Source of the DNA: Chloroflexota bacterium
GTDB taxonomy: Bacteria > Chloroflexota > Limnocylindria > P2-11E
Length of the DNA stretch: 32,442 nt
NCBI GenBank assembly: GCA_005889275.1
Contig: VBFI01000084.1
Coordinates: 1-32,442, forward strand
Direction of reading: 5' to 3'
The notes under the pieces were generated by a model, which was not told where the DNA came from, did no database searches, and was given only the letters and a program-made list of their open reading frames with translations. Of the stretch, positions 158 through 18,499 are shown piece after piece. The first letter of the stretch is position 1; every line of letters starts with the position of its first letter. The position numbers and the translations under genes are program-made.

Positions 158-167
158 CGCATCCGTC

Positions 168-659
168 ATCCTGGGGATCGATCCCGGGACCACGGGTATG
201 GGCTACGCGTTCCTCGTCGCGGCGACCGAGCGGGCGACGATCCTGGAATGCGGCATCGTGGATGTCCGCGCGAGCGGCACGGCGGCGGAACGGCTGCTCG
301 CGATCTCGGAGGCGCTCGACGAGCTCATCCGCCGCCATCGCCCAGTCGCGCTCGCCGTCGAGCGCCTCTACTTCAACAAGAATGCGCAGACCGCGATGCG
401 CGTGTCCGAGGCACGGGGCGTGGCGCTCCTCTGCGGTGCCCGCGCGGGTCTGGAGATCGCGGAATACACCCCGCAGGAGGTGAAGATCTGCGTGACCGGC
501 AACGGCCGCGGCGACAAGAAGGCGGTGCAGCGGATGCTCCCGCACCTCGTCGCGCTCGACGCGCCGATCACTCAGGACAACGTGGCCGACGCCGTCGCGA
601 TCGCGCTGACGCATGCGCAGCGCGCGCGATTCGCCGCCGCGGTGGCCGCGGCGACGTGA
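168..659 (+). CDS. ruvC: Holliday junction endonuclease RuvC
   Basis: In-frame translation (M/I)LGIDPGTTGMGYAFL...AVERLYFNKNAQTAMRVSEARGVALL...EYTPQEVKICVTGNGRGDKKAVQRM. The track start at 198 cuts off the conserved GIDPGTTG motif. No ATG/GTG/TTG lies just upstream in frame; ATC at 168 is the best placed start. Confidence 0.88.
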   Translation: MLGIDPGTTGMGYAFLVAATERATILECGIVDVRASGTAAERLLAISEALDELIRRHRPVALAVERLYFNKNAQTAMRVSEARGVALLCGARAGLEIAEYTPQEVKICVTGNGRGDKKAVQRMLPHLVALDAPITQDNVADAVAIALTHAQRARFAAAVAAAT

Positions 660-988
660 CGATCGAGGACGACTTCTACTGCGCCGAGGTCCTGAGTGGA
701 CGCACCGCTGTGCGGACCGTGCAGGAAACGGCGGACGTTATCGCGTTCCGGCATACGCGACCGCTGTTCGAGACGCACATCGTGGTCGTCCCAAAGCGGC
801 ACATCGCCTCGTTGCTCGATCCCACGCTGAACGATGACCTCCTGCTCTCGGTCCTCCACGTGGTGCAGGCCGTCGCGCGCGACGTCGTCGCGGAGCGCGG
901 GGCCGGCCGTGTCCAGACGAATCTCGGCAGCTACCAGGATTCGAAGCATCTTCACTGGCACGTGTACGCCGGCGGGCGCCTGCCGTGA
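656..988 (+). CDS. HIT-family protein (histidine triad)
   Basis: GTG start overlapping the ruvC stop (GTGA). Contains HIVVVPKRHIASL and the HLHWHVYAG triad. Confidence 0.88.
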   Translation: MTIEDDFYCAEVLSGRTAVRTVQETADVIAFRHTRPLFETHIVVVPKRHIASLLDPTLNDDLLLSVLHVVQAVARDVVAERGAGRVQTNLGSYQDSKHLHWHVYAGGRLP

Positions 989-1566
989 TTGGCGCCGTCC
1001 GCGGCCAGGTCATCGCGCGGGGCGCCGACCACGTGGTCGTCGAGGCGAATGGCGTCGGCTACAAGGTCTTCGTGCCCCGTCATCCGTCCCGCGACGAGGT
1101 CTTGCTGCACACGCACCACGTCGTCCGGGACGACGCCCAGTCGCTCTACGGATTCGAGTCGCGTGACGAGCTGATGCTCTTCGAGATGCTCATCACCGTC
1201 TCGGGCGTCGGGCCGAAGGCGGCGATGGCGCTCCTGGTGACCTCCCGGCCCGCGGACATCGCCGCCGCAATCGCGTCGGGCGACGCGGCTGCGCTCGCGC
1301 GCGCACCCGGAGTGGGGAAGAAGACCGCGGAGCGTTTGATCGTCGATCTGCGCGGAAGGATCGGGCGCGGAGGCGGCGCGGACGGCGCCGCAGGTCCTGC
1401 GCCGCTGGACGACGACGCCCAGGCCGCTCTTGTCGCCCTTGGCTACACGCCCGCGGAAGCCGCGACCGCGCTGCACGGAGTCCCCGCGAAGGGCCGCGCG
1501 AGCACCGAAGAGCGCGTGTCCGCCGCGCTGCGGGCCGCGGGGCGCCCGCTGGTCGCAGGGGGGTGA
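985..1566 (+). CDS. ruvA: Holliday junction branch migration protein RuvA
   Basis: MIGAVRGQVIARGADHVVVEANGVGYKVFVP...SLYGF...VSGVGPKAAMALL...APGVGKKTAERLIVDLR. GTG start overlaps the HIT stop. Confidence 0.93.
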   Translation: MIGAVRGQVIARGADHVVVEANGVGYKVFVPRHPSRDEVLLHTHHVVRDDAQSLYGFESRDELMLFEMLITVSGVGPKAAMALLVTSRPADIAAAIASGDAAALARAPGVGKKTAERLIVDLRGRIGRGGGADGAAGPAPLDDDAQAALVALGYTPAEAATALHGVPAKGRASTEERVSAALRAAGRPLVAGG

Positions 1567-1677
1567 CGGAACGCACTCATCATCGCGGTCATCGCGATCG
1601 CAGTCATCATCGCGATGATTTTCTTCCGCGATCAGCTGTCGAACTACTTCTCGAGCATCGGAAATAACCTCACGTAG
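1567..1677 (+). pseudogene. Flp/type IVb pilin-like fragment (hydrophobic helix plus C-terminus only)
   Basis: In frame after the ruvA TGA: RNALIIAVIAIAVIIAMIFFRDQLSNYFSSIGNNLT*. Resembles the Flp pilin core 'EYALIIALIA...ISN.FSSIGNNL' but lacks the GQGLVEY prepilin region and a canonical start. Confidence 0.45.
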
Positions 1678-1727
1678 GAGCGGCGCGGCGGCCAGCCCGC
1701 TCCCAAGGGCGGCGCTCCCCGGTTTGG

Positions 1728-1733
1728 TATAGT
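1728..1733 (+). promoter_or_regulatory. Putative -10 element (TATAGT) of the nusA promoter
   Basis: TATAGT in the only sizeable noncoding gap upstream of nusA; no clear -35. Confidence 0.4.
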
Positions 1734-1778
1734 TGTTGCTGGCGTCCGGCCGAGCCGGAGGCTGCGTCGGGCACTGAG

Positions 1779-1802
1779 AGTGGGTCGACCCCACTTTTTT
1801 TT
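1779..1802 (+). terminator. Intrinsic terminator/attenuator inside the nusA leader
   Basis: AGTGGG-TCGAC-CCCACT hairpin followed by T8 (1795-1802), about 65 nt upstream of the nusA ATG and downstream of the putative -10. Confidence 0.65.
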
Positions 1803-1867
1803 CGCCCTACAGGCAGCCGGACGCTGGGCCTGGGCGAAAGTGAAAAAAAGAAGAGGGGGAGTGCGCC

Positions 1868-3088
1868 ATGAACCGAGAGCTCGTCACCGGTCTCGCGCAA
1901 CTCTCCGCCGAGAAGGGCCTCCCCAAGGAGGTCGTCAGCGACATCATCGCCCGGGCGATCAAGCGCGCTTACGGCGATGAGGAGCACATCGACGTCAAGG
2001 TCGACGTCCAGACGGGCGCGTTCAAGGTCTACCTCCTGAAGACGGTGGTCGAGAAGGTCGAGGATCCGAAGATCCAGGTCCAGCTCGACACCGCCAAGAA
2101 GATCAAGACCGACGCGCAGCTGGGCGAGGTCATCCCCTTCGAAGAGTCGGCGGCCGCGCTCGGACGGATCGGCGCGCAGACCGCCAAGCAGGTCATCCAG
2201 CAGTCGCTGCGGGAGGCCGAGCGCGAGCAGGTGTTCGCCGAGTACGCGGACCGCGAGGGCGACATCATCAACGCGAAGATCAGCCACTTCGAGGCGGGCT
2301 CCGCGATCATGGAGCTCGACCGCGGTGCGACCGCGGTCTTGCCGCGCTCGGAGCAGGCCCCGCACGAGCGCTACTTCGCCGGTCAGGCGCGCAAGGTCGT
2401 CGTCCTCGAGGTGCGCCGGACGCTGCGGGGCCCGCAGATCATCGTGAGCCGGGCCCACCGGGCCCTCGTGAAGCGGCTCTTCGAGCTCGAGGTTCCGGAG
2501 ATCTTCCACGGACAGGTCGAGATCGTCGGGATCGCGCGCGAGCCGGGGAGCCGCACGAAGATCGCCGTCCGCGCGCGCCAGCCCGGGCTCGACGCGCGCG
2601 GGGCGTGCATCGGCCAGCGTGGCCTGCGCGTTCAGGCGATCGTGAACGAGCTGGGTGGCGAGAAGATCGACATCATCGAGTGGGCGGAGAGCCCCGAGCG
2701 GTTCGTCGCGAACGCCCTCGAGCCGGCGCACGTCGTCCGGGTCGACATCGTGCCCGAGGACAAGACCGCGTATGTCGTCGTCCCGGACCGGCAGCTCTCG
2801 CTTGCGATCGGCAAGGAGGGCCAAAACGCCCGCCTGGCCGCGAAGCTCACCGGCTGGCGGATCGATATCCGCAGCGAGTCCGAGGTCCGGGCCGAGCTCG
2901 AGCCGGAGCCCGAGCCCGAGCCGGTCGCGGTCGCCGAGGCCGTGCCGGCGAGCGAGGTCGTCGAGGAGGCCATCCGCCATGACCTCGTCGCGGAGGTCGA
3001 GGCGGAGTCCGCGGCTGCGGACGAGGAGGACCTGGATGAGGAGGACCGCGCGCTCCTCGGAGGCAAGAAGAAGCGCGAGCGCCGTTAA
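1868..3088 (+). CDS. nusA: Transcription termination/antitermination factor NusA
   Basis: [31 protein letters not shown]...[28 protein letters not shown]...[37 protein letters not shown] ribosome-binding site upstream. Confidence 0.95.
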
Positions 3089-3389
3089 GCCGCAGGCGGC
3101 TCCGCCGCGGAAGCTTCCGCAGCGGACATGCGTCGCCTGCCGGACGACCCGCGCAAAACGGGATCTCGTCCGCGTCGTACGCTCCCCTCTGGGGGAGCTC
3201 TCGGTGGACCTTCGCGGAAAGGCGCCCGGGCGCGGGGCATACCTCGACCCGGACCCGGCGTGCCTCGAGCGCGGCCTCGCCGGAGGGATCCTCGCGAAAG
3301 CCCTTGAAACCTCGATCGACGACCTGACCGCGGACCGGCTGCGAGGCGAGCTCGCCGCCGGCGCGAAAACACGAACGGGAGGACGCTAG
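3036..3389 (+). CDS. ylxR: YlxR-family (DUF448) RNA-binding protein
   Basis: [47 protein letters not shown] between nusA and infB. The nearest in-frame ATG is 3036, overlapping nusA; the exact start is uncertain. Confidence 0.8.
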
Positions 3390-5294
3390 TTGCCGAAGGC
3401 AAGACCCAGGCGGATGCCACCGCAGCGTGGACCGCGCCCGCGAGGGCGCCGGCCGCAGCGGGCGCCGCAGCCAATTCCAGAAGCCGCGCCCGCGGTCGCC
3501 GTCGCGGAGCCGACGACCTCGGTCGTCACGCTCCCCAAGACGATCCAGGTCGGCGACCTCGCGCGCGCGCTCGACGCGAGCGTCGTCGACGTGATCCGAG
3601 GGCTTGTGAACATCGGCTTGATGGTCTCGATCAACGAGACCGTCGACTTCGAGACGGCATCGCTCGTCGCGAACGAGCTCGGCATCGAGACGCGTCCCGA
3701 GGAAGAGGCCGTCCCCGTCGCGGACGAGGAGGCGCTGACGCCCGAGGCGATCGGCGGTAAGGAGATCCTCTGGGAGGACGTCGACCCGGCGAAGCTGAAG
3801 GAGCGTCCGCCTGTCGTCACCGTACTCGGCCACGTCGACCACGGGAAGACGAGCCTTCTCGACGCGATCCGCTCGACGAACGTGACGTCGCGCGAAGCGG
3901 GCGGCATCACGCAGCACATCGGCGCCTACCAGATCGAGCACAACGGCCGTAAGGTGACCTTCCTCGACACGCCCGGGCACGAGGCGTTCACGGCGATGCG
4001 CGCGCGCGGCGCCCAGGTGACCGACGTCGCGGTTCTCGTCGTCGCCGCGGACGATGGCGTGCAGCCGCAGACGATCGAGGCGATCTCGCACGCGAAGGCG
4101 GCGAAGGTCCCGATCGTGGTCGCGCTGAACAAGATGGACCGACCCGACGCGAACCCCGACCAGGTGAAGGCGCAGCTCGCCGAGCACGGCGTCACGATCG
4201 AGGACTACGGCGGCGATACCCCGCTCGTCCCGGTCTCCGCGAAGACGAAGGAGGGCATCGCCGACCTCGTCGAGGTCGTGCTTCTCGTCGCTGACGTGAA
4301 CGATCTGAAGGCGGACCCCGACCGGCCGGCGATCGGCCGGGTCATCGAGGCGCACCTCGACAAGGGCCGCGGCCCCGTCGCGACCATCCTCGTGCAGACC
4401 GGCACCCTGGAGCGCGGCGACCTCGTCGTCGCGGGCACGACCTTCGGGAAGGTTCGCGCGATGGTCGACGACAAGGGCAAGAACATCGGTCGGGCCGAAC
4501 CGTCCCGGCCGGTGGAGATCCTCGGTCTTCCCGAGGTCCCGGAGGCCGGCGACGTGATCCGTGCCGTCGCCGACGAGAAGGCGGCCCGGGCACTCGCGGC
4601 GCAGAACGCACGCGAGCGGGCCGCGAGCACCGCGGCGGAGAAGCCCGCGACGCTCGACGAGATGTTCGCGCAGGTGAAGGAAGGCAAGGCGAAGGAGCTC
4701 AAGATCGTCCTCAAGGCGGACGTGCAGGGCTCGCTCGAGGCGATCAAGACCGCGCTCGGCAAGATCCCGCAGAACGAGGTCACGCTGGCGGTCATCCACG
4801 ACGCGGTGGGCGACATCACCGAGTCCGACCTCACGCTCGCGGCCGCATCGGGCGCCGTGGTGGTCGGGTTCAACACGAAGATGGAGGCGCCCGCGCGCCG
4901 CGTGGCCGACTCCACGAAGGTCGACGTCCGTCTGTACAAGGTCATCTACGAGCTCCTCGACGATGTGCAGAAGGCGCTCACCGGAATGCTCGAGCCGGAG
5001 ATGGTCGAGTCGACGCTTGGCCACGCCGAGGTGCTGCAGCTCTTCACCGCGGGCAAGACGACCATCGCCGGATCACGCGTCGTGGACGGGCTCGTCCGAC
5101 GGGGCGCGCAGGCGCGCGTCCTCCGCGGCGGGACCGCCGTCTACGACGGCAAGATCGGCACGCTCCGGCGCATGAAGGACGACGTGCGCGAGGTCACCAC
5201 CGGCCTCGAATGCGGGATCGTCCTGGAGAACAGCAACGACGTGCAGGTCGCCGACATCATCGAGTGCTACGTCGTCCAGCCGAAGCCGCGCTGA
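3390..5294 (+). CDS. infB: Translation initiation factor IF-2
   Basis: TTG start; [23 protein letters not shown]...[20 protein letters not shown]...NKMD and IF-2 C-terminal domains. Confidence 0.96.
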
Positions 5295-5297
5295 CCC

Positions 5298-5651
5298 ATG
5301 GCCTACAAGCGCGCGGACCGCGTGAACGCGTTGTTGCAGCGTGAGCTCGGCACGCTCATCAGCGAGGAGCTCCGCGACCCGCGGATCGCGTTCACGACGG
5401 TGACCGCGGTCGAGGTCACCGACGACCTGCGGAGCGCCCGGGTCCACGTGAGCGTCCTCGGCGACGAGGACGCCGCGAAGAGCACGATGGCGGGGCTCGA
5501 GGACGCGAAGAAGTTCCTCCGGCACCAGATCGGCGAGCGGACCGACCTCCGCTTCGTTCCCGAGCTCACGTTCGTCCCGGACCGCTCGGCGGAGCGCGCC
5601 GTGCGGATCGCGGGACTCCTCCGCGAGGCACGCGAGCGCAAGAGCGGATGA
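5298..5651 (+). CDS. rbfA: 30S ribosome-binding factor A
   Basis: MAYKRADRVNALLQRELGTLISEELRDPRIAFTTVTAVEVTDDLRSARVHVSVLGDE, located between infB and nrnA. Confidence 0.93.
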   Translation: MAYKRADRVNALLQRELGTLISEELRDPRIAFTTVTAVEVTDDLRSARVHVSVLGDEDAAKSTMAGLEDAKKFLRHQIGERTDLRFVPELTFVPDRSAERAVRIAGLLREARERKSG

Positions 5652-6625
5652 AGGACGTCGTCCGCTCGCTCCGCCAGGCGGAGCGGATCGCGATCGTGTC
5701 GCACCGCGACCCCGACCCGGACACCATCGGATCCGCCCTCGCCCTCGGCCTGGGCCTCGAGTCGCTGGGCAAGCGGGTCTCCTGGCACTGCGCGGACCCC
5801 GTGCCCGAGCCGCAGCGCTTCCTCAAAGGCACCGAGCGGTTCACGCAGGACCCGCCGACCAACGACGTGGATCTCGTCGTGACCGTCGACTTCGGATCGG
5901 TCGAACGCGCGAAGTTCGCCCTGCCAGCACGGCCGCCGATCGTGAACATCGACCACCACGCGTCGAACGACCGGTTCGGGGCCACGAACCTCGTCGACGC
6001 GACGAGCGCGGCCAGCGCCGAGCTGGTGTCCCGCGTCATCGACGCGCTCGAGATCCCTTGGACTCCCGAGATGGCGACGGCAGCGCTCGTCGGGATCATG
6101 ACCGACACCGGCTCATTCCAGTTCCCGAGCACCGACGCACGCGCGCTCGAGCGCGCCGCGCGGCTCCGCGCCGCCGGCGCCGATCTGCAGGCGATCACGT
6201 ACAACATCTTCCGAAACAAGCGCTTCGAGGCGATACGCCTCTGGGGGCTCGCCTTTTCGCGGCTCGTCAGGGAGCGAAATGGTCAGCTCGTCTGGACCGA
6301 GGTCCGCGCGAGCGATCTCGACGAATCCGGCGCGCGTGACGAGGACATCTCCGGGATCGTCGAGCAGATCGCGCGGTCCAGCGGCATGCGTGTCGCGATC
6401 CTGTTCAACGAGCAGGAGGGCGTCGTGAAGGTCTCCTGCCGGACGTCGCAGTGGGAGCCCTCCGTCGATGCCGCCGCGCTGATGGGCGGCTTCGGCGGCG
6501 GCGGACACGTGCGCGCGGCCGGCGCGCTCATCGGAGGGACCCTCGCGGTCGTGCGCGAGCGCGTGCTCGGCGCCGCGCGCTCGGCGCTCGACGCGGCCAG
6601 CGCTCGCGCGCCCGTCAACGCCTGA
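5648..6625 (+). CDS. nrnA: DHH/DHHA1 bifunctional oligoribonuclease/PAP phosphatase (NrnA-like)
   Basis: IVSHRDPDPDTIGSALAL...VNIDHHASNDRFG...TDTGSFQFPST...GFGGGGHVRAAGA; ATGA overlap with rbfA. Confidence 0.9.
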   Translation: MKDVVRSLRQAERIAIVSHRDPDPDTIGSALALGLGLESLGKRVSWHCADPVPEPQRFLKGTERFTQDPPTNDVDLVVTVDFGSVERAKFALPARPPIVNIDHHASNDRFGATNLVDATSAASAELVSRVIDALEIPWTPEMATAALVGIMTDTGSFQFPSTDARALERAARLRAAGADLQAITYNIFRNKRFEAIRLWGLAFSRLVRERNGQLVWTEVRASDLDESGARDEDISGIVEQIARSSGMRVAILFNEQEGVVKVSCRTSQWEPSVDAAALMGGFGGGGHVRAAGALIGGTLAVVRERVLGAARSALDAASARAPVNA

Positions 6626-7392
6626 TCACCACCGTCGCCGCGGGCGTCCTCGCCGTCGACAAGCCCGAGGGGTGGACCTCCCACGACGTCGTGGCCGTCG
6701 TACGCGGGGTCCTCGGCATGCGGCAGGTCGGTCACGGCGGTACGCTCGATCCACTCGCCTCCGGCCTGCTCCCAGTGCTCGTGGGCACAGCGACGAAATT
6801 CGAGCCGCGGATGCGCGAGGCGACGAAGGTCTATGACGCCGTCGTGCGCTTCGGTCGCGAGACCGCGACGGACGACCGGGAGGGGGAGTCGGTCCGCGAG
6901 GCGGACGTCCCACCGCTCGACGGCTCGACCATCGAGCGTGGTCTGGCCACGTTACGCGGTGTCATCGAACAAACGCCTCCGCGGTACTCGGCCCTGAAGA
7001 TCGCCGGTCGCCCGGCCTACGCGCGCGCTCGCGCCGGCGAAACGTTCGCGATGCAGGCGCGTCGTGTGCAGGTCGACCGACTCGAGGTGATCGAGACGAA
7101 GGGAAACGACGTCCGCGTCCTCGTGGTGTGCTCGTCGGGAACCTACGTGCGCGCGATCGCTCGCGACCTGGGCCGCTCGATCGGCTCGGCGGCCCATCTC
7201 GCCGCGCTTCGCAGACTCGCGGTCGGCGCGCTCGAGGCCGCCGGCGCGGTGACGCCCGACGTCCTGCGGGCCGGCGGTCGCGAAGGCGCGGTCGCGCTCC
7301 TGCGGATCGCGGATGAACGCCTCCTGCGGATCCACGACCGCTACCTCGCGGCCCCCGCCGTTACGATCGTCGCTCAGGGGGAGTCTGTCTGA
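6625..7392 (+). CDS. truB: tRNA pseudouridine(55) synthase TruB
   Basis: GVLAVDKPEGWTSHDVVAVVRGVLGMRQVGHGGTLDPLASGLLPVLVG. The only in-frame canonical start upstream (6451) overlaps nrnA by about 175 nt with Arg-rich out-of-frame sequence. ATC 6625 overlaps the nrnA stop (TGATC). Confidence 0.88.
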   Translation: MTTVAAGVLAVDKPEGWTSHDVVAVVRGVLGMRQVGHGGTLDPLASGLLPVLVGTATKFEPRMREATKVYDAVVRFGRETATDDREGESVREADVPPLDGSTIERGLATLRGVIEQTPPRYSALKIAGRPAYARARAGETFAMQARRVQVDRLEVIETKGNDVRVLVVCSSGTYVRAIARDLGRSIGSAAHLAALRRLAVGALEAAGAVTPDVLRAGGREGAVALLRIADERLLRIHDRYLAAPAVTIVAQGESV

Positions 7393-8930
7393 TGGTCGCA
7401 AAGGGGCTCGAGCGCTTGGGGAAATCGGCCCTGGAGGCGTGGCGCGGGCTCTCGCTCGACGCGAGGCTCGTGGTCGTCTTTGGCATCGGGAACTGGCTCC
7501 TGCTGTTCGCCAACCACACGACGGTCGCGGCGACGCGCGACGTCCCGCTCTGGCAGCTGTTCCCGCCGCTCGCCGACGTCGCGTTCCTGACCGCCTGCGG
7601 CGTCCTCGCGGTGACCTATCCTCTCCGCGATCTTCGCGCGGGTCCCCGCTTCGGCACGCGCGCGCGCGTGGCCCACCTCGCCGCGATCATCGCGATCTTC
7701 GTCGTCGTGCCGACCATCGTCTCGATCGTCCTGCGAGAGACGGGCAGGCCCTACACCTACGTACACGACGGGGCCCTGATGGTCGAGGAGGCCGCGCGCA
7801 AGCTCCTCCTGGGCATGAATCCGTACGTCGCCGACTACCTCGACACGCCGATGTTCTATTGGCCGATGATCAACAACCCGGCCCTCTACCACCTGACCTA
7901 TTTCCCGTTCATGTTCCTCGTCACCGCGCCGTTCGTCGGCTTCTTCGATCACTTCGGTCTGGTCTGGGATCAGCGATACCTCTACCTCCCGGCATATCTG
8001 GGCACCCTCGCGCTGGTCCCGTTCCTCGTCCAGGGCACGGCCCGTCGGCTCGGGATGACCACGGCGATCGCCCTCAACCCGCAGCTCTTCCCATTCGTCG
8101 TCGAGGGACGCAACGACTTCTTCGTGCTTTTCTTCCTGTTCGCGGGCATCGCGCTGCTCATGCGCGAGCGGCGGAGCCTCTCGTCGCTCGCGTTCGCCGC
8201 GGCGGGCGCGGCGAAGCTTCACGCGATCCTGCTGCTTCCGTTCGTCGCCCTCTACCTCGTGGCGACGCGCCGGCCGAAAACGCTCCGCGCGGTCGTCATG
8301 ACCCTCGCGCCCACGTGGCCCGCTGCGATCTTCCTGCTGGTGACGTTCGTTCCGTTCCTCGTGAACGACTTCGGCGCCTTCTACGACGACGTCGTCCGCT
8401 ACAACGCAGGCGGCGCGGCCTGGAGCTACCCGATCTCGGGCATGGGCTTCTCGGCGCTCTTGCTCTCGCTCGGGATCATCCCGTACCGCCAGGCGGATTT
8501 CCCGTTCGCGGTGATCGAACTCGCGGTCGCGACCCCGATCGCGATCTGGTGGCTCGTCCGCCTCTGGCGGCAGCCGACGATCGCGACGCTCCTCGCGGGG
8601 TACGCGCTCACCCTGCTCGCGTTCCTCTTCTTCGGTCGCTACTTCCAAGGGAACTACCTCGGATTCATCGCCGCGGTCTTCACCCCGGTGCCGTTCCTCG
8701 CCGCGCGCCGAGCACCTCTGCGGCGGGCGCGCCGGTCCCCTCGTCTCGGGGGCCCCTTGCCTTCGTACCGGCCCGCGCCTTCGGGCACGGCATCCCCCTC
8801 GCCTCGGGAACCGGCACTCCCGCCGCCATCCTTGGCGCCCGCGCCGGCACTCCCGCCGCCATCTTTGCCGCCCGCGCCGGTGCCGGTCGCGCTCGACGCC
8901 GAACCCTCGCCCGTCGGAGCGGCCGACTAG
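7392..8930 (+). CDS. Polytopic membrane protein, GT87/DUF2029-type glycosyltransferase-like, with Pro-rich C-terminal tail
   Basis: About ten hydrophobic segments; GRNDFFVLFFLFAGIALLMRERRSLSSLAFAAAGAAKLHAILLLPF is typical of lipid-linked-sugar glycosyltransferases. TGATG overlap with truB. Confidence 0.6.
   Translation: MVAKGLERLGKSALEAWRGLSLDARLVVVFGIGNWLLLFANHTTVAATRDVPLWQLFPPLADVAFLTACGVLAVTYPLRDLRAGPRFGTRARVAHLAAIIAIFVVVPTIVSIVLRETGRPYTYVHDGALMVEEAARKLLLGMNPYVADYLDTPMFYWPMINNPALYHLTYFPFMFLVTAPFVGFFDHFGLVWDQRYLYLPAYLGTLALVPFLVQGTARRLGMTTAIALNPQLFPFVVEGRNDFFVLFFLFAGIALLMRERRSLSSLAFAAAGAAKLHAILLLPFVALYLVATRRPKTLRAVVMTLAPTWPAAIFLLVTFVPFLVNDFGAFYDDVVRYNAGGAAWSYPISGMGFSALLLSLGIIPYRQADFPFAVIELAVATPIAIWWLVRLWRQPTIATLLAGYALTLLAFLFFGRYFQGNYLGFIAAVFTPVPFLAARRAPLRRARRSPRLGGPLPSYRPAPSGTASPSPREPALPPPSLAPAPALPPPSLPPAPVPVALDAEPSPVGAAD
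8811..8876 (+). repeat. Imperfect 33-nt tandem duplication encoding PALPPPSLAPA/PALPPPSLPPA
   Basis: CCGGCACTCCCGCCGCCATCCTTGGCGCCCGCG (8811-8843) repeated as CCGGCACTCCCGCCGCCATCTTTGCCGCCCGCG (8844-8876), two mismatches. Confidence 0.85.
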
Positions 8931-8939
8931 GCTCGTCGC

Positions 8940-9851
8940 ATCGACGCGCTTCGCGACTTCGCGGGCTGGCCGAAGGGACCGATCCACCTCGCGATCGGGG
9001 TCTTCGACGGTGTCCACCTCGGCCATCGCGCGCTCATCGCCGAGCTGCGGCGCGGTGCCAAGCCCGACGGCGTAGCCGTCGCGGTCACGTTCGATCCGCT
9101 CCCGATCCAGGTGCTCGCGCCGGGCGCGCCGGCGTCCGCCCTCTCCGACGTCAAGGAGCGCGTGCGGTTGCTGCGCGACGCCGGCGCCGACGCGGTCGTC
9201 GTCTTCCATTTCGACGACGCTTTCGCGAAGCTCTCGGCCGACGAGTTCGTCGATCGCATTCGCTCCGCCTGCGACATTCGGCGCATCGTCGTCGGACCCG
9301 ACTTCCACTTCGGGCACCGCGCCGAGGGCGACGTCGAGAAGCTGCGCGAGCGCGGGAAGCGCTACGGTTTCGCGGTGGACGTCGTCCAGCCGATCGAGAT
9401 CGATGGCGCGATCGTGAGCTCGACCCGCATCCGAAACCTCCTCCTCGCCGGAGCGGTCGAGCCGGCCACGCGGCTCCTGGGCCGGCCCTACGCCGTGCGC
9501 GGCCAGGTCGTGCACGGCGAGCGGCGCGGCCGATCGCTCGGTTTCCCGACGATCAATCTCGCGCTGCCGCGCGAACGGCTGCTGCCGCGCGACGGCATCT
9601 ACGCGATGTGGGCGGAGATGGGGGAGGGTCGCTTCAAGGCGGCCGCGTCGCTCGGTGTCCGACCCACCTTCGGCGGTGGCGAGCGCGTGCTCGAGGCGTT
9701 TCTGCTGGACTTCTCCGGTGAGGTCTACGGCGAGGAGGTCGAGGGGGCGTTCGTGAAGCGGCTCCGCGACGAGATCGCGTTCGCGAGCCCGGCGGAGCTC
9801 TCCGCGCAGATCGCCAAAGACGTGGAGGAGACCCGACGAGCGCTCGCGTGA
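8940..9851 (+). CDS. ribF: Bifunctional riboflavin kinase/FAD synthetase
   Basis: HLAIGVFDGVHLGHRALIAEL...VVGPDFHFGHRAEGD...STRIRNLLLAG...GRSLGFPTINLALP. The FDGVHLGH motif lies upstream of the first canonical start (9111) and downstream of an in-frame TAG (8928-8930). ATC 8940 is the best start candidate. Confidence 0.88.
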   Translation: MDALRDFAGWPKGPIHLAIGVFDGVHLGHRALIAELRRGAKPDGVAVAVTFDPLPIQVLAPGAPASALSDVKERVRLLRDAGADAVVVFHFDDAFAKLSADEFVDRIRSACDIRRIVVGPDFHFGHRAEGDVEKLRERGKRYGFAVDVVQPIEIDGAIVSSTRIRNLLLAGAVEPATRLLGRPYAVRGQVVHGERRGRSLGFPTINLALPRERLLPRDGIYAMWAEMGEGRFKAAASLGVRPTFGGGERVLEAFLLDFSGEVYGEEVEGAFVKRLRDEIAFASPAELSAQIAKDVEETRRALA

Positions 9852-10825
9852 GCACGCTCCGTTACGAACCGGTGATCGGCTGGGAACAGCTCCCGCCGGG
9901 CTTCACCCATCCGGACGTCGCGGCCGTCGCCATCGATTCGCGAAGCGACGTCTACCTCTTCTGCCGCGCGGAGCATCCGGTCCTCGTCTACGACCAGAGC
10001 GGCCGGTTCCTGCGCTCGTGGGGCGAGGGTCTCTTTTCGATGCGCACGCACGGGATCACGATCGGCCCGGACGACTCGGTCTACTGCGTCGACGACGCCG
10101 GCCACTCGGTGCGCAAGTTCACGCCCGAGGGCAAGCTCCTCCTGCAGATCGGCCCCGCCGGGACGCCGTCGGACACCGGCTACGACGGCGCGAACGTCGC
10201 GTCGGTCGCGCGTGCCGCCGGCCCGTTCAACCGCCCGACCAACCTCGCGGTGGCGCCGAACGGCGATCTCTACGTCTCCGACGGCTACGGGAACGCCCGC
10301 GTCCATCGCTTCTCACCGAAGGGCCAGCTCCTCGCGTCGTGGGGCGAGCCGGGCACCGGCCCCGGCCAGTTCATGCTGCCGCACGGGATCGCCGTCGATC
10401 GCGACGGTCGGGTGTTCGTGTGCGACCGCGAGAGCGACCGGATCCAAGTGTTCGACGCGGAGGGGCGCTACGAACGCGAGATCACCGACGTGCAGCGACC
10501 GATGCAGATCGTCCTCGCGGACGACCTCATGTACGTCTCGGAGCTGGTGTGGCGCAAGGGTCAGCGCTCCTTCCGCAACGGCCCCATCGAGCGCGACCTG
10601 CCGGCACGCGTGTCGGTCTTCGACGAGCGGGGCGCGGTCGTGGCGCGCGTCGGCGGACCCGACCCGTGCGCGCCGGGGAGCTTCTGCGCGCCGCACGGTC
10701 TCGCCGTCGACGCGAACGGCGACCTCTACGTCGCCGAGGTCACGATGACAATCGGCGTAAAGCCGGGGCTCGTGCCGCCCGATTGCCACACCTTCCAGAA
10801 GCTCAGGCCGGTGAGCCCGGCCTAG
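9848..10825 (+). CDS. NHL-repeat beta-propeller protein
   Basis: Repeated motifs such as PFNRPTNLAVAPNGDLYVSDGYGNARVHRFSPKGQLLASWG and LPHGIAVDRDGRVFVCDRESDRIQVFD; GTGA overlap with ribF. Confidence 0.8.
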   Translation: MSTLRYEPVIGWEQLPPGFTHPDVAAVAIDSRSDVYLFCRAEHPVLVYDQSGRFLRSWGEGLFSMRTHGITIGPDDSVYCVDDAGHSVRKFTPEGKLLLQIGPAGTPSDTGYDGANVASVARAAGPFNRPTNLAVAPNGDLYVSDGYGNARVHRFSPKGQLLASWGEPGTGPGQFMLPHGIAVDRDGRVFVCDRESDRIQVFDAEGRYEREITDVQRPMQIVLADDLMYVSELVWRKGQRSFRNGPIERDLPARVSVFDERGAVVARVGGPDPCAPGSFCAPHGLAVDANGDLYVAEVTMTIGVKPGLVPPDCHTFQKLRPVSPA

Positions 10826-11205
10826 TTCCAGCGCACCAGCGGGAGATCCGCCTGGAACGTGGCGACCGCGCGGGCGACGCGTGCGGCGAGCTCACCGAGC
10901 GAGAACGGTTTCGCGACGATGTCGGCCACACCGAGAGCGGCGGCGCCCGCCGCGACGATCTCGCTACGGCCGGTGACGAGGACCAGCGGCACGCCGAACC
11001 GGTCCTGGAGCGAGCGAGCCCACGCGCGAACGGCCGCCACCTCGGGCCGCGTCACGACGTCGGTCACGATCACATCGAGCGACGGCGTGAAGGGGATGGG
11101 ATCCGGAGCGTGGCTCTCGCAGACGCCATAGCCCTCAGCGAGCAGGGCCTGCGCGATGACACGCCGGGTCGCGTAATCGTCCTCGATCACCAAAGCGACG
11201 CGCAT
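10822..11205 (-). CDS. Stand-alone response regulator receiver domain
   Basis: MRVALVIEDDYATRRVIAQALLAEGYGV...DVIVTDVV...LVTG...VAKPFSLGELAARV: CheY-like acidic pair, Asp, Thr and Lys signature. Confidence 0.8.
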   Translation of the reverse strand: MRVALVIEDDYATRRVIAQALLAEGYGVCESHAPDPIPFTPSLDVIVTDVVTRPEVAAVRAWARSLQDRFGVPLVLVTGRSEIVAAGAAALGVADIVAKPFSLGELAARVARAVATFQADLPLVRWN

Positions 11206-11244
11206 GGCCCTTCCTATGCACCGTCGATGCCAGCGCGGCGGTGT

Positions 11245-12312
11245 TCAGGCCCTGCGTTCGAGATACGCGCGGAGGTCCGCGACCGACGCCTCCCAGAGCG
11301 CGCCGTCCCAGGCGTGCCTGAACCCGAGCCGGGTGTTGATCGCGAGCATCGGCGCGTTCACGCTCGCGTTCCCCGTGCGGATGTAGCGCGCATCTGGCCA
11401 CTCCCCAAGGACGCGCTCGAGCATGGCGGCCTTGACCCATTTGCCGATCCCGCGCCCGCGGTGCGCGGGGATGACCGCGGTCCCCTGCTGCTGGATGACA
11501 TGCGGTACCCGAGGGTCGTACACGACCTCGGTGTAGCCGGCGGTCTCGCCCGTGGCGTCGTGGATCGCGAGCACCAGCCGCCGCTCGCGACCGGTCGCCC
11601 TGCGCGCACGATCGAACTCGCGGACCTCGGCGGCGGTGAGGTGCCAGTCCTCCATGGCCGAGGCCCCGCGCGGGGCCGTGTTCATCGCCTCGTAGGCCGT
11701 GACGACGTGGGCCATCAGCTCGTCGGTCACGTCGGCGTCCACCCACGCGAGGCGGTAGCCCGGCGGGTCGAGCTTGGCCCAGTCCGCGGTCATCGCCCGG
11801 TCGACCTCGCCGACCGCGAGCTGGCTGAACCGCGCGCGGAGGACCTCGCTCGCCCCGACCGCTTTCGTGAAGGCTTCGCCCGCGGGAATGCGACCGTTCG
11901 TCGAGAACTGGAGCTTCACGGCTCCGGCCGGCACCGCGTCGACCATCTCACGGAGGAAGCGGCGCGCGAGCCCGCGACGCCGATGTCCCGGGAGGACGCC
12001 GATCTCGGTCTCGCGGTAGTGCTGATTGGTCTCGGCGACGATGCGGATGAGCGCCGCCGTCCCGACGATCTGACCGTCGGCGGCGCGCGCGAGCCAGTCG
12101 GTGAACTCGATCATCTTGGGCCGCGCCCGGAGTCGGTCGACCGCGACTTCCGTGGGCGTCGGGGGATCCTCGGGAAAGCGCTCGCCGCCCAGGGCGTTGC
12201 GGAGCTCGGCGATCTGCCGGATGTCGCGGTCAGAGAGCATCGCGAGCTCGAACGCTTCGATCGCGTAGCCAGGTGTCGGCGGAGCGGTCGTCATGACCGG
12301 CGATGATGCCAT
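11245..12312 (-). CDS. GNAT-family N-acetyltransferase with two GNAT domains
   Basis: Two GNAT motif-A-like regions: IGVLPGHRRRGLARRFLREMV and TAVIPAHRGRGIGKWVKAAML. The start may instead be 12294 (MTTAPPTPG). Confidence 0.78.
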   Translation of the reverse strand: MASSPVMTTAPPTPGYAIEAFELAMLSDRDIRQIAELRNALGGERFPEDPPTPTEVAVDRLRARPKMIEFTDWLARAADGQIVGTAALIRIVAETNQHYRETEIGVLPGHRRRGLARRFLREMVDAVPAGAVKLQFSTNGRIPAGEAFTKAVGASEVLRARFSQLAVGEVDRAMTADWAKLDPPGYRLAWVDADVTDELMAHVVTAYEAMNTAPRGASAMEDWHLTAAEVREFDRARRATGRERRLVLAIHDATGETAGYTEVVYDPRVPHVIQQQGTAVIPAHRGRGIGKWVKAAMLERVLGEWPDARYIRTGNASVNAPMLAINTRLGFRHAWDGALWEASVADLRAYLERRA

Positions 12313-12348
12313 CGCGGCGTTTCCGCGGAATCGCTAGATTCGGCACAG

Positions 12349-13209
12349 ATGTCATTCCCGCGACCGCTTCGCTTCGGCCTGAAGTTCTCCCAGCAGATCC
12401 ATCCGATCGACGTCCACACGGACATCTGGCGCATGGCCGACGACGCCGGCTTCGACCACATCTGGCCATTCGACCATCTCATCTCGCTCGGTCCCGACCC
12501 GGCGGCACCGATCTTCGACGGATGGACCGCCCTCGGCGCGATGGCCGCGATCACGAAGCGAGCGCGCATGGGCCTCAACGTCACGGGCAATCTCTACCGC
12601 CACCCGGGGCTCATGGCGAAAATCGCGGTCACCGTCGATCACCTATCCCACGGACGTCTGGAGTTCGGCATCGGAACCGGTTGGAACGAACCGGAGTTCA
12701 CGCAGTTCGGTCTGCCGTTCCCGACCGCCGGAGACCGCGTTCGCATGCTCGACGAGTCCCTTCGCGCGATGAAGCTCCTCTGGTCAGAACCGCGTGCGAC
12801 GTACAAGGGGCGCTTCTACGAGCTGAAGGACGCGATCGCCGAACCGAAGCCGGTGCAACGGCCATACCCGCCGATCTGGATCGGCGCGAAGGGCGAACGC
12901 ATGCTCCGCCTTACCGCGCGGCACGCCGATGTCTGGAATTCCAACGCCCGCGGGTTCGCGGAGTCTGTCGACGCGTCGCGGACGCTCGATGAGGCCTGCA
13001 CGAAGATCGGACGCGACCCCGCGACCCTGCGCCGATCGATCAACGTCATCTTCGACGGAGCGGATGCGACGATCGGGAAGGTCGACGCGGCCGTGAAGGC
13101 CGGATTCAGCGAGATTCTCATCATGATCTCGAACCGCGGCGCCGGAGAGCCCCGCGGGCTCGCCGCGGACGCCGCGAAGCTCCTGGGGCGTCTTCGCCAG
13201 CTTGGTTGA
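12349..13209 (+). CDS. LLM-class (luciferase-like, probably F420-dependent) oxidoreductase
   Basis: RFGLKFSQQIHP...WRMADDAGFDHIWPFDHL...LSHGRLEFGIGTGWNEPEF...RPYPPIWIGAKGERMLRLTARHADVWN. Confidence 0.85.
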   Translation: MSFPRPLRFGLKFSQQIHPIDVHTDIWRMADDAGFDHIWPFDHLISLGPDPAAPIFDGWTALGAMAAITKRARMGLNVTGNLYRHPGLMAKIAVTVDHLSHGRLEFGIGTGWNEPEFTQFGLPFPTAGDRVRMLDESLRAMKLLWSEPRATYKGRFYELKDAIAEPKPVQRPYPPIWIGAKGERMLRLTARHADVWNSNARGFAESVDASRTLDEACTKIGRDPATLRRSINVIFDGADATIGKVDAAVKAGFSEILIMISNRGAGEPRGLAADAAKLLGRLRQLG

Positions 13210-13231
13210 GGGCACAAGAGGCCGCATCGGC

Positions 13232-13237
13232 TAGAAT
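13232..13237 (+). promoter_or_regulatory. Putative -10 (TAGAAT) for rpsO
   Basis: TAGAAT about 45 nt upstream of the rpsO GTG, followed by a GAAAGGA ribosome-binding-site-like sequence; -35 not convincing. Confidence 0.4.
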
Positions 13238-13281
13238 TCGGAGCGAATAAGAGATCCAAAGGATCACAGAAAGGACAACGG

Positions 13282-13554
13282 GTGCCGTCAGCCACGCTTC
13301 CGAACAAGCACGAGGTGATCACGGCCTACCGCCGTGAGGAGAAGGACACCGGCTCGCCGGAGGTCCAGATCGCGCTCCTGACCGAGCGCATCAAGCACCT
13401 CACCGAGCATCTGCGCACGGCCCGCCACGACAACGCGAGTCGTCGCGGCCTGCTCTCGATGGTCGGTCAGCGCCGACGGCTGCTCGCCTACCTGCACCGA
13501 AGAAGCCCAGAGCGATACCAGGACGTCATCGGGCGACTCGGTCTGCGACGGTGA
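13282..13554 (+). CDS. rpsO: 30S ribosomal protein S15
   Basis: [85 protein letters not shown] start. Confidence 0.96.
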
Positions 13555-13573
13555 GACCGCCCGCGTAGAGCGG

Positions 13574-13601
13574 AAAACCCAGGGAAATCCCTGGGTTTTT
13601 T
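13574..13601 (+). terminator. Strong intrinsic terminator between rpsO and pnp
   Basis: AAAACCCAGGGA-AA-TCCCTGGGTTTTTT: 12-bp perfect stem plus T-run. Confidence 0.88.
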
Positions 13602-13627
13602 CATAGGCACCCGAGATCAACAACCAC

Positions 13628-15841
<2,214 letters not shown>

Positions 15842-15850
15842 CTTAGCGCC

Positions 15851-16573
15851 ATCCTGACCCTGGTCCTGCCGGCCTACAACGAGGCTCGCCGCATCGAGGC
15901 GAGCCTCTCGCGTTGCGCGGACTACTTTCGCGAGCGCGGGTTGACCGCCGAGATCCTCCTCGCCGACGACGGGTCGCAGGACGCGACGGCCGACGTGTTC
16001 CACCGCGCGAAGATCGGTCTCCCGTACAAGGGACTGACCTACCGGCTCCTCCGGCTGCCGCACCGCGGCAAGGGGGCGGCTGTGCGGGCCGGGATCATGT
16101 CGGCGGAGGGCGATCCGATCGTCTTCCTCGACGCGGACCTCACCATCCCCGTCGAGATCCTCGACCTCTTTCTCGAAGCGCTCGCGACCGGCGCGGACCT
16201 CGCGATCGCCTCGCGCTACGTCGCCGGATCGGTCGTCGACCGGCCGTGGTGGCGGCGGGTGATGGGCGACGTCTACCGCTTCGTCGTCCATGCGCTCGTT
16301 CCGACCGACATCAAGGACACGCAGTGCGGGGGCAAGATGTACACCGCGGAAGCGGCGAAGAACCTCTTCGCCCGCCAGCGGCTCGACGGGTTCGCGTTCG
16401 ACGCGGAGGTGCTCTTCCTGGCCAAGCGCGCGGGCTACCGGGTGCGCGAGATCCCCTTCGCGCTGCGGCAGCGGAACGACACGCGCATCGACTTCCTCCG
16501 CGACTCGCCGCGGATGTTCCGCGATCTTTTCCTGATCCGTTTGAACGCGCTCCGGGGCGTCTACGGCCGATGA
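15851..16573 (+). CDS. GT2 glycosyltransferase, dolichyl-phosphate beta-glucosyltransferase-like
   Basis: (M/I)LTLVLPAYNEARRIEASL...ILLADDGSQDATADV...RGKGAAVRAGI...VFLDADLTIP...DTQCGGKMYTAEAAKNLFARQRLDGFAFDAEVLFLAKR. In-frame TAA at 15839-15841; no ATG/GTG/TTG before 15941. ATC at 15851. Confidence 0.87.
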   Translation: MLTLVLPAYNEARRIEASLSRCADYFRERGLTAEILLADDGSQDATADVFHRAKIGLPYKGLTYRLLRLPHRGKGAAVRAGIMSAEGDPIVFLDADLTIPVEILDLFLEALATGADLAIASRYVAGSVVDRPWWRRVMGDVYRFVVHALVPTDIKDTQCGGKMYTAEAAKNLFARQRLDGFAFDAEVLFLAKRAGYRVREIPFALRQRNDTRIDFLRDSPRMFRDLFLIRLNALRGVYGR

Positions 16574-17364: not shown

Positions 17365-17867
17365 TGCCGGGCGCGACCACCAGCGGCGCCCTGAACCGCG
17401 CCGTCCACCGTTACCGCTCCGCGCCGCTCGGAGCGCGGCTCTTCGTCCACGGACGGGCGTTCCTCTCGGACCTGGCGTTCGTCGAACGCTTCGTCGACCC
17501 GCCTCCCAAGTGCGACGTCGTCACGATCGTCGACGTCCTCTATCTGCTTCCGTTCGACCAGCAGGAGCGGGTGCTGCGCAACGCGGCGTCAGCCCTCGGC
17601 GAGGGCGGGCCGGTGGTGGTGAAAGCCCAGGAGCGCCGCACCGACCCTCGCTACGCCATCACGTACCTGCAGGAGACGATCACCGTCAGCCTCGGATTCA
17701 CGCGTGGCGGCCGCGAGCGGTTCTTCTTCCCGACGCGGGAGGAGGCGCTCGCCATGTTCGAGCGGGCCGGATTCGTCGTGGAGGTCGAGGACATGCCGAA
17801 CCGGCCGTACACGGACGTGGTTTATCTCGCCCGCAAGGCGCCGATGAAGACCTCGGCCGTCTCATAA
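17364..17867 (+). CDS. Class I SAM-dependent methyltransferase-like protein lacking motif I (probable internal deletion)
   Basis: C-terminal half reads CDVVTIVDVLYLLPFDQQERVLRNAASALGEGGPVVVKAQERRTDP..., typical of class I methyltransferases. The expected DxGxGxG segment is absent between FVERFVD and PPPKCDVV. Confidence 0.65.
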   Translation: MPGATTSGALNRAVHRYRSAPLGARLFVHGRAFLSDLAFVERFVDPPPKCDVVTIVDVLYLLPFDQQERVLRNAASALGEGGPVVVKAQERRTDPRYAITYLQETITVSLGFTRGGRERFFFPTREEALAMFERAGFVVEVEDMPNRPYTDVVYLARKAPMKTSAVS

Positions 17868-17875
17868 TCAGCGCG

Positions 17876-18499
17876 GTGCAAGACGCTTCGTCGACGGAGC
17901 TGCGGCTGGTCGCCGACCAGATCCGCGCTTGCACCGCGTGCCCGCTCCATCGCAGCGCCCGGCAGGCGGTCCCTGGCGACGGGTCGGGCGAGTCGGGGAT
18001 CTTCTTCCTCGGCGAGGCTCCCGGCTACCACGAGGACGTGCAGGGCAGGCCGTTCGTCGGCGCCGCGGGCCAGTTCCTCGACGAGCTGCTCGCCGGCATC
18101 GGGCTCGACCGGCGCAAGGTGTTCATCACCAACGTCGTCCGGCACCGGCCCCCGGAGAACCGCGACCCTCTCCCTGACGAGATCGCCGCGTGCGACATCT
18201 GGCTGCGGCGCCACCTGGAAGTGCTCCGACCCCGCGCCATCGTCACGCTCGGTCGCCACGCGATGGGGAAGTTCTTTCCCGGCGAGTCGATCTCGCGCAT
18301 CCACGGGAAGCCGCGCCGCACCACCGACGGGCTCGTGATCTTCCCCGTCTACCACCCGGCCGCCGCCCTCCATCAGCCGGCCTTGCGGGACGCCCTCGTC
18401 GGCGACTTCCGCGCGCTCGCCGCGTACCTCGCGACCCCCGCGCCGCCCAAACCGGAGGCGGAAGCAAAACCCGCGGAGCAGATCACGCTCTTTGGCTAA
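17876..18499 (+). CDS. Uracil-DNA glycosylase, family 4/5-like
   Basis: CTACPLHRSARQAVPGDGSGESGIFFLGEAPGYHEDVQGRPFVGAAGQFLDELL...VFITNVVRHRPPENRDPLPDEIAAC...FPVYHPAAALH. GTG 17876; an alternative start is ATC 17867 overlapping the preceding TAA. Confidence 0.88.
   Translation: MQDASSTELRLVADQIRACTACPLHRSARQAVPGDGSGESGIFFLGEAPGYHEDVQGRPFVGAAGQFLDELLAGIGLDRRKVFITNVVRHRPPENRDPLPDEIAACDIWLRRHLEVLRPRAIVTLGRHAMGKFFPGESISRIHGKPRRTTDGLVIFPVYHPAAALHQPALRDALVGDFRALAAYLATPAPPKPEAEAKPAEQITLFG

What the first reader, a model, noticed from the sequence alone, without database searches (positions are those of the whole stretch)
168..15853. Recurrent non-canonical (ATC) translation starts in conserved genes
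Four well-conserved genes have no in-frame ATG/GTG/TTG compatible with their N-terminal motif: ruvC, truB, ribF and the GT2 at 15851. Each has an ATC where the start belongs (168, 6625, 8940, 15851). In ribF and GT2 an in-frame stop lies 9 nt upstream, so nothing further upstream can serve. In truB the ATC overlaps the nrnA stop as TGATC, mirroring the usual TGATG coupling. UDG (TAATC at 17865-17869) and the pilin-like fragment (1579) show the same pattern more ambiguously. Standard gene callers would miss these starts and truncate the proteins. Four cases in about 35 genes is far above the rare AUU/AUC starts known in other bacteria. Caveat: ATC is a common Ile codon at high GC, so other near-cognates (GTC, CTG, CTC) are not excluded.
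Basis: partly seen in the sequence, partly recalled or inferred. Interest (0 to 1): 0.85.

Follow-up and report, generated by a model that had tools for sequence, protein, structure and literature searches.

The report
Near-cognate start codons across conserved genes
A family of uncultured soil Chloroflexota bacteria seems to start many important genes, including alanyl-tRNA synthetase, with weak start codons (AUC, AUA, CUG, ACG) that gene-finding programs ignore; in some genes the weak start is kept over evolution while its exact spelling changes, which suggests a deliberate low-output or regulated start.

Summary
The sequence observations are correct. Comparison with 10 congeners and about 15 confamilial genomes supports near-cognate starts, but not ATC everywhere. 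ribF (8940) and GT2 (15851) use ATC: the aligned codon in relatives is ATC, ATA, CTG, GTG or ATG. truB starts at CTG 6622, overlapping the nrnA stop as CTGA in all 10 genus genomes examined; its ATC is kept in 4. ruvC is ambiguous (GTC 165 or ATC 168). UDG has an ordinary GTG (17876); the 'pilin' is an N-terminal deletion. Outside the window alaS is the best case: ATC/ATA/CTG/ACG/GTA in 18 of 23 family genomes behind a strong Shine-Dalgarno, with about ten codon changes but two class changes. GT2 shows a context rule: 3-9 nt after the pnp stop the start is ATC/CTG (13/13); at 16 nt or more it is GTG/ATG (5/5). IF3 and initiator tRNA look ordinary. Most likely fMet-tRNA initiates weakly at one-base neighbours of AUG, helped by coupling or a strong SD and probably restrained by IF3. 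There are no protein data; prevalence (about 2-3%) is a rough estimate.

The parts
165..659 (+). ruvC; start is GTC 165 or ATC 168 (undecided); no canonical start before ATG 198
   Evidence: Pfam RuvC from residue 1 of the frame read from 168; seven congeners have GTG at the 165 column, G000, G001 and G009 have GTC
6622..7392 (+). truB; CTG start overlapping the nrnA stop as CTGA
   Evidence: CTG in 10/10 genus genomes examined while the next codon varies (ATC, AAC, AGC, AAA, ACC); TruB_N
6623..6625 (+). TGA stop of nrnA, overlapped by the truB CTG
   Evidence: sequence
8928..8930 (+). TAG stop of the upstream gene, in frame with ribF
   Evidence: sequence; TAG/TAA kept 9 nt upstream in nine genus genomes
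8940..9851 (+). ribF (FAD synthetase/riboflavin kinase); ATC start
   Evidence: aligned column: ATC in 9 of 11 genus genomes, ATA in G007, GTG in G006; GTG/ATG in most other genera; Pfam
15839..15841 (+). TAA stop of pnp, 9 nt upstream of and in frame with GT2
   Evidence: sequence; gap compared over genomes
15851..16573 (+). family 2 glycosyltransferase; ATC start coupled to the pnp stop
   Evidence: ATC/CTG in 13/13 genomes with a 3-9 nt gap, GTG/ATG in 5/5 with a gap of 16 nt or more; Pfam
   Evidence: CTG AGG NCG CTN AAC CAC in 4/4 genomes compared; no canonical codon at -15..+10; Pfam thioredoxin
17876..18499 (+). UDG-family glycosylase; ordinary GTG start (not part of the phenomenon)
   Evidence: GTG/TTG column in relatives; Pfam UDG
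1567..1677 (+). remnant of a Flp-type pilin whose N-terminus is missing here (not a start-codon case)
   Evidence: longer, mostly ATG-started homologues in the relatives compared

Best explanation
In this Chloroflexota family, ordinary fMet-tRNA initiates a minority of genes at near-cognate codons, mainly one-base neighbours of AUG (AUC, CUG, AUA, ACG). Two contexts make this possible: termination-reinitiation, where the start overlaps or lies 3-9 nt after the upstream stop (CTGA in truB and the thioredoxin-like gene; stop-N9-ATC in ribF; stop-N3-9-ATC/CTG in GT2), and de novo initiation behind a strong Shine-Dalgarno (alaS, a DtxR-type regulator). Such starts should give low output and be repressed by IF3, as known for infC and Streptomyces sigR. 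In alaS and infC the weak class is maintained, which suggests dosage control; in ribF and GT2 it interchanges with GTG and looks like tolerance depending on context. Shown by sequence: the codon columns, the forced reading frames, the coupling rule, a kept infC near-cognate start and an intact initiator tRNA anticodon stem. Inferred: fMet insertion, low yield, IF3 sensitivity, regulation.
For: Start columns of alaS, ribF, GT2 and dnaE pooled: 52 of 53 non-canonical codons are one-base neighbours of ATG (background 14%); CTG is 12/12 of CTN codons versus 33% inside the same genes; ATA is 7/38 of Ile versus 1.9%; GTG 16/17 of Val versus 37%. alaS: ATC 4, ATA 5, CTG 6, ACG 2, GTA 1 among 23 genomes, with about 10 codon changes but 2 class changes on the tree. 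dnaE: ATC in 8 and ATA in 1 of 9 genus genomes; an upstream GTG is out of frame in 4 of them, so it is not the common start. GT2: gap 3-9 nt gives ATC/CTG in 13/13, gap of 16 nt or more gives GTG/ATG in 5/5. CTGA junctions without a canonical alternative: 16/45 in the genus, 0/13 in the class-mate control, p=0.008. infC starts at ATA throughout the genus, so the IF3 autoregulation signature is kept. Initiator tRNA has CAU and an intact GGG/CCC anticodon stem. Precedents: PMC5472188, PMC11497404, PMC10158994.
Against: No proteomics, Ribo-seq or expression data. Congeners are not independent, so the Fisher and binomial values overstate significance. A coding-potential scan alone does not separate this genome from the control (12.6% versus 11.4% of genes without a canonical codon near the onset), so genome-wide prevalence is uncertain. 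An SD-anchored scan was uninformative. GTA (alaS of G012) and GTC (ruvC) are poor starts by E. coli standards. GT2 gaps are all multiples of 3, which reinitiation does not predict.
Confidence: 0.85

Rival explanations
1. Relaxed initiation stringency with neutral drift: the near-cognate starts are slightly harmful tolerated mutations, not regulatory. (This shares the near-cognate initiation step with the best explanation and differs only on why such starts persist.)
For: ribF and GT2 interchange with GTG within the genus; the near-cognate codons are mixed and many genes are involved.
Against: alaS has changed codon repeatedly yet is non-canonical in all 11 genus genomes and 18 of 23 family genomes; CTG is reached from ATA/ATC in one-base steps only through ATG or non-start codons, yet no ATG is seen in that clade. 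infC keeps ATA. IF3 looks intact.
Confidence: 0.35
2. Stop-codon readthrough: genes such as GT2 have no start codon and are made as C-terminal extensions of the upstream protein.
For: All 13 near-cognate GT2 cases are in frame with the pnp stop, with gaps of 3, 6 or 9 nt only.
Against: Stops are TAA, TAG and TGA with no conserved context; truB and the thioredoxin-like gene are in another frame than their upstream gene; ribF of G007 (ATA) appears out of frame with its upstream gene; alaS, dnaE and infC are not such extensions; CTG 5/5 at the GT2 column fits a start.
Confidence: 0.05
3. Artefact: wrong frames, hidden canonical starts, or sequencing/assembly errors.
Against: Independent MAGs agree; in-frame stops shortly upstream leave no alternative in alaS, ribF, GT2 and dnaE of this genome; codon statistics at the column are start-specific.
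Confidence: 0.06
4. A changed initiation apparatus: a second initiator tRNA or an altered IF3 dedicated to AUC/AUA.
For: IF3 of this family has F or H where class-mates have Y in the MDYGK motif and, in most members, a Pro/Ala-rich C-terminal tail.
Against: Only an ordinary CAU initiator with GGG/CCC pairs was found; CTG and ACG are used as well as AUC/AUA; the tail is variable and the IF3 core is conserved.
Confidence: 0.08

Closest known systems
infC AUU/AUC start with IF3 autoregulation (E. coli, Streptomyces; described in PMC5472188)
   Same: Near-cognate start, no compatible canonical start; infC itself starts at ATA here
   Different: Here many unrelated genes (alaS, dnaE, ribF, truB, GT2, a class A penicillin-binding protein) do the same, and the codon identity drifts within a gene
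Streptomyces sigR GTC start repressed by IF3 (PMC5472188)
   Same: Conserved non-canonical start behind an extended SD; a possible GTC start occurs in ruvC
   Different: sigR is a single regulatory gene with GTC in 32 of 34 species; in alaS the spelling changes among ATC/ATA/CTG/ACG/GTA
Rare CUG starts in bacteria (0.024% of bacterial initiation codons; PMC11497404)
   Same: CUG as start, presumably decoded by fMet-tRNA
   Different: Found repeatedly in one genome, mostly as a CTGA overlap with the upstream stop
Translational coupling by ATGA/GTGA/TGATG overlaps
   Same: Same 4-nt geometry and stop-proximal starts
   Different: The start half of the overlap is CTG

Membership tests
Genes with a genuine near-cognate start (infC/sigR kind) | No canonical in-frame start compatible with the conserved N-terminus | tested here: met
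   ribF, GT2, truB, ruvC in the window; alaS, dnaE outside it
Genes with a genuine near-cognate start (infC/sigR kind) | Near-cognate codon aligns with canonical starts of orthologues and the column is start-specific | tested here: met
   ribF, GT2, alaS; for ruvC the GTC column does so but in most congeners the ATC column is codon 2
Genes with a genuine near-cognate start (infC/sigR kind) | Strong SD or coupling that compensates | tested here: inconclusive
   Strong SD at alaS and dtxR, coupling rule at GT2; ribF and GT2 show no SD; genome-wide SD test uninformative
Genes with a genuine near-cognate start (infC/sigR kind) | Translation repressed by IF3 | not testable with these tools
   Needs expression with infC overexpression or fidelity mutants
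   Met for ribF and GT2 in the genus and for dnaE; not met for truB (ATC in 4 of 10, CTG in 10 of 10); undecided for ruvC
Altered initiator tRNA | Non-standard anticodon or lost GGG/CCC stem | tested here: not met
   TTGGGCTCATAACCCAA in G000 and standard variants in relatives

The most novel reading that the evidence does not exclude
A lineage-wide set of near-cognate-started essential genes (infC, alaS, dnaE, ribF, truB, a class A PBP and others) is read out at low, IF3-sensitive yield as a deliberate control layer. In alaS it is combined with a conserved single-copy leader hairpin, and selection keeps the weak start class while its spelling drifts.
Probability: 0.35. Interest if true: 0.82.

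Novelty: new variant of a known kind. Interest (0 to 1): 0.66.

Why it matters
Near-cognate starts in bacteria are documented for a handful of genes. A family using them in several essential genes means standard gene callers truncate or mis-start conserved proteins in these genomes. It also gives natural comparative material for start-codon selection: the GT2 coupling rule and the alaS column make clear testable predictions about reinitiation, Shine-Dalgarno compensation and IF3 control. The literature searches made here found no description of it in Chloroflexota, but the library held is incomplete.

Tried and rejected
Rejected: ATC as the truB start (ATC in 4 of 10 genus genomes, CTG in 10 of 10); UDG and the pilin fragment as further cases. 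Automated start-column detection with a conservation-drop score was too noisy; a version anchored on upstream stops worked better. An SD-anchored scan for excess near-cognates was uninformative because SD motifs are rare. Coding potential without homology gave the same rate of 'no canonical start' in the control genome, so it is not used for prevalence. Rfam found no known RNA family in the window or in the alaS loci searched. Paper searches gave no report of this in Chloroflexota or of alaS starts.

Full report
What was checked. The window is contig C18 of a 2.78 Mb MAG; ten genomes of the same genus and many of the same family are held. Public records matching ribF at 62-84% identity are titled 'Chloroflexi bacterium', most from one CF series with 20-40 cm depth labels.

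Start columns in relatives. I aligned each gene's 5' region by protein anchor and read the codon at the proposed start. ribF: the start column is ATC in nine of eleven genus genomes, ATA in G007 and GTG in G006; other genera mostly have GTG or ATG, and in nine genus genomes TAG/TAA lies 9 nt upstream in frame. GT2: ATC in eight genus genomes, CTG in G007 and four genomes of other genera, GTG in G005, G010, G030 and G023, ATG in G027. truB: the codon overlapping the nrnA stop is CTG (CTGA) in all ten genus genomes examined, while the next codon is ATC, AAC, AGC, AAA or ACC, so CTG 6622 is the better start. ruvC: seven congeners have GTG one codon before the ATC; G000, G001 and G009 have GTC there, so the start may be GTC 165 or ATC 168.

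Outside the window. A scan for coding frames with no canonical start pointed to dnaE and alaS. dnaE begins ATC (8 genomes) or ATA (G002) in the genus; an upstream GTG is in frame in five genomes but out of frame in the other four because of a 1-nt difference, so it is not the common start. alaS is the clearest case: behind a strong Shine-Dalgarno in the genus, followed by the conserved GAC and usually AGC, the column reads ATC 4, ATA 5, CTG 6, ACG 2, GTA 1, ATG 4, GTG 1 in 23 family genomes. On a tree of five concatenated proteins this needs about 10 codon changes but only 2 changes between canonical and non-canonical (some deep nodes have low support, but the genus is well supported and all 11 of its members are non-canonical). 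A class A penicillin-binding protein has ATC at its start column in G007, G004 and G024 and ATT in G012 (Pfam Transgly). infC starts at ATA throughout the genus.

Statistics. Pooled over alaS, ribF, GT2 and dnaE, 52 of 53 non-canonical start-column codons are one-base neighbours of ATG against a background of 14%. If the column were only a hydrophobic position, Leu should mostly be CTC and Val mostly GTC; instead CTG is 12/12 of CTN codons (33% inside the same genes), GTG is 16/17 of Val (37%) and ATA is 7/38 of Ile (1.9%). Because genomes are related, the p-values overstate the evidence; ambiguous genomes were left out of these columns by hand.

Context. For GT2 the distance to the pnp stop decides: 3, 6 or 9 nt goes with ATC/CTG in 13/13 genomes, 16 nt or more (16, 22, 38, 95, 97) with GTG/ATG in 5/5; G029, G022 and G013 were not interpretable. 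This includes separate switches inside the genus (G005, G010). CTGA overlaps in frame with a downstream coding onset and with no ATG/GTG/TTG from -15 to +10 codons occur in 16/45 genus and 5/22 other family cases, but 0/13 in the class-mate G017 (p=0.008 for genus versus control). One is a thioredoxin-domain protein at 27469 in the window, CTG in 4/4 genomes compared.

Machinery. IF3 is present with a conserved core. The initiator tRNA has a CAU anticodon and three intact G-C pairs. Nothing points to a new initiator; the codon set is what mispaired fMet-tRNA would be expected to accept. In E. coli CUG gives about 0.9% of AUG output, and it makes up 0.024% of bacterial starts (PMC11497404); IF3 represses such starts (PMC5472188; PMC10158994); switches from AUG to CUG or AUU are very rare across 36 genome triplets (PMC5622118).

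Prevalence. In the window five of roughly 32 selected genes are affected (ruvC, truB, ribF, GT2, thioredoxin-like). In 592 kb of this genome about 15 of 512 called genes have support of some kind, but only ribF, GT2, dnaE, alaS, truB, the thioredoxin-like gene and infC are confirmed by comparison. Coding potential alone does not separate the genome from the control, so 2-3% is a rough estimate.

Interpretation. Best supported is ordinary fMet-tRNA initiation at near-cognates, helped by coupling or by a strong SD. That the weak class is selected is likely for alaS and infC and unproven elsewhere. The alaS leader adds weight: a hairpin with invariant arms (GGGGAACGCGGGGAG...CCCGCGTTT) occurs once per genome in 16 family genomes; in the 15 of these whose alaS locus was held it lies directly upstream of alaS. 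Counting two variants by eye, it accompanies 17 of 18 non-canonical alaS genes and none of 6 canonical ones, although this reflects few evolutionary events.

Noticed in passing
G000:C3:12847-12883 (-), upstream of alaS (L335), and the same place in other family genomes: A strongly conserved single-copy hairpin with a T-rich tail (GGGGAACGCGGGGAG-N-CCCGCGTTTTCGTTT) just upstream of the alaS Shine-Dalgarno, usually preceded by a TAGACT element; no Rfam match. Looks like an alaS-specific attenuator or leader; present with non-canonical alaS starts, absent with canonical ones.
   Followed up: partly
pnp-GT2 junction, window 15839-15851 and relatives: In all 13 close-coupled genomes the gap between the pnp stop and the GT2 start is 3, 6 or 9 nt, i.e. 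always in frame; not explained by reinitiation.
   Followed up: partly
window 1567-1677: Flp-type pilin lacking its N-terminus (the GQGLVEYA region) in this genome only among those compared; deletion or assembly loss.
   Followed up: yes
infC loci L004-L018: IF3 of this family has F or H instead of Y in the MDYGK-type motif in most members and, in many, a long Pro/Ala/Arg-rich C-terminal tail.
   Followed up: no
alaS upstream regions of G022, G023, G025, G029 (L357, L348, L351, L347): Canonical ATG alaS genes lack an obvious Shine-Dalgarno and have promoter-like sequence close to the ATG, suggesting leaderless mRNAs (inference only).
   Followed up: no
G000:C47:4292 and G000:C36:10308: A DtxR-type regulator (GGAGG then ATC) and a response regulator (GGAGG..CTGA) are further near-cognate candidates without comparative confirmation.
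   Followed up: partly
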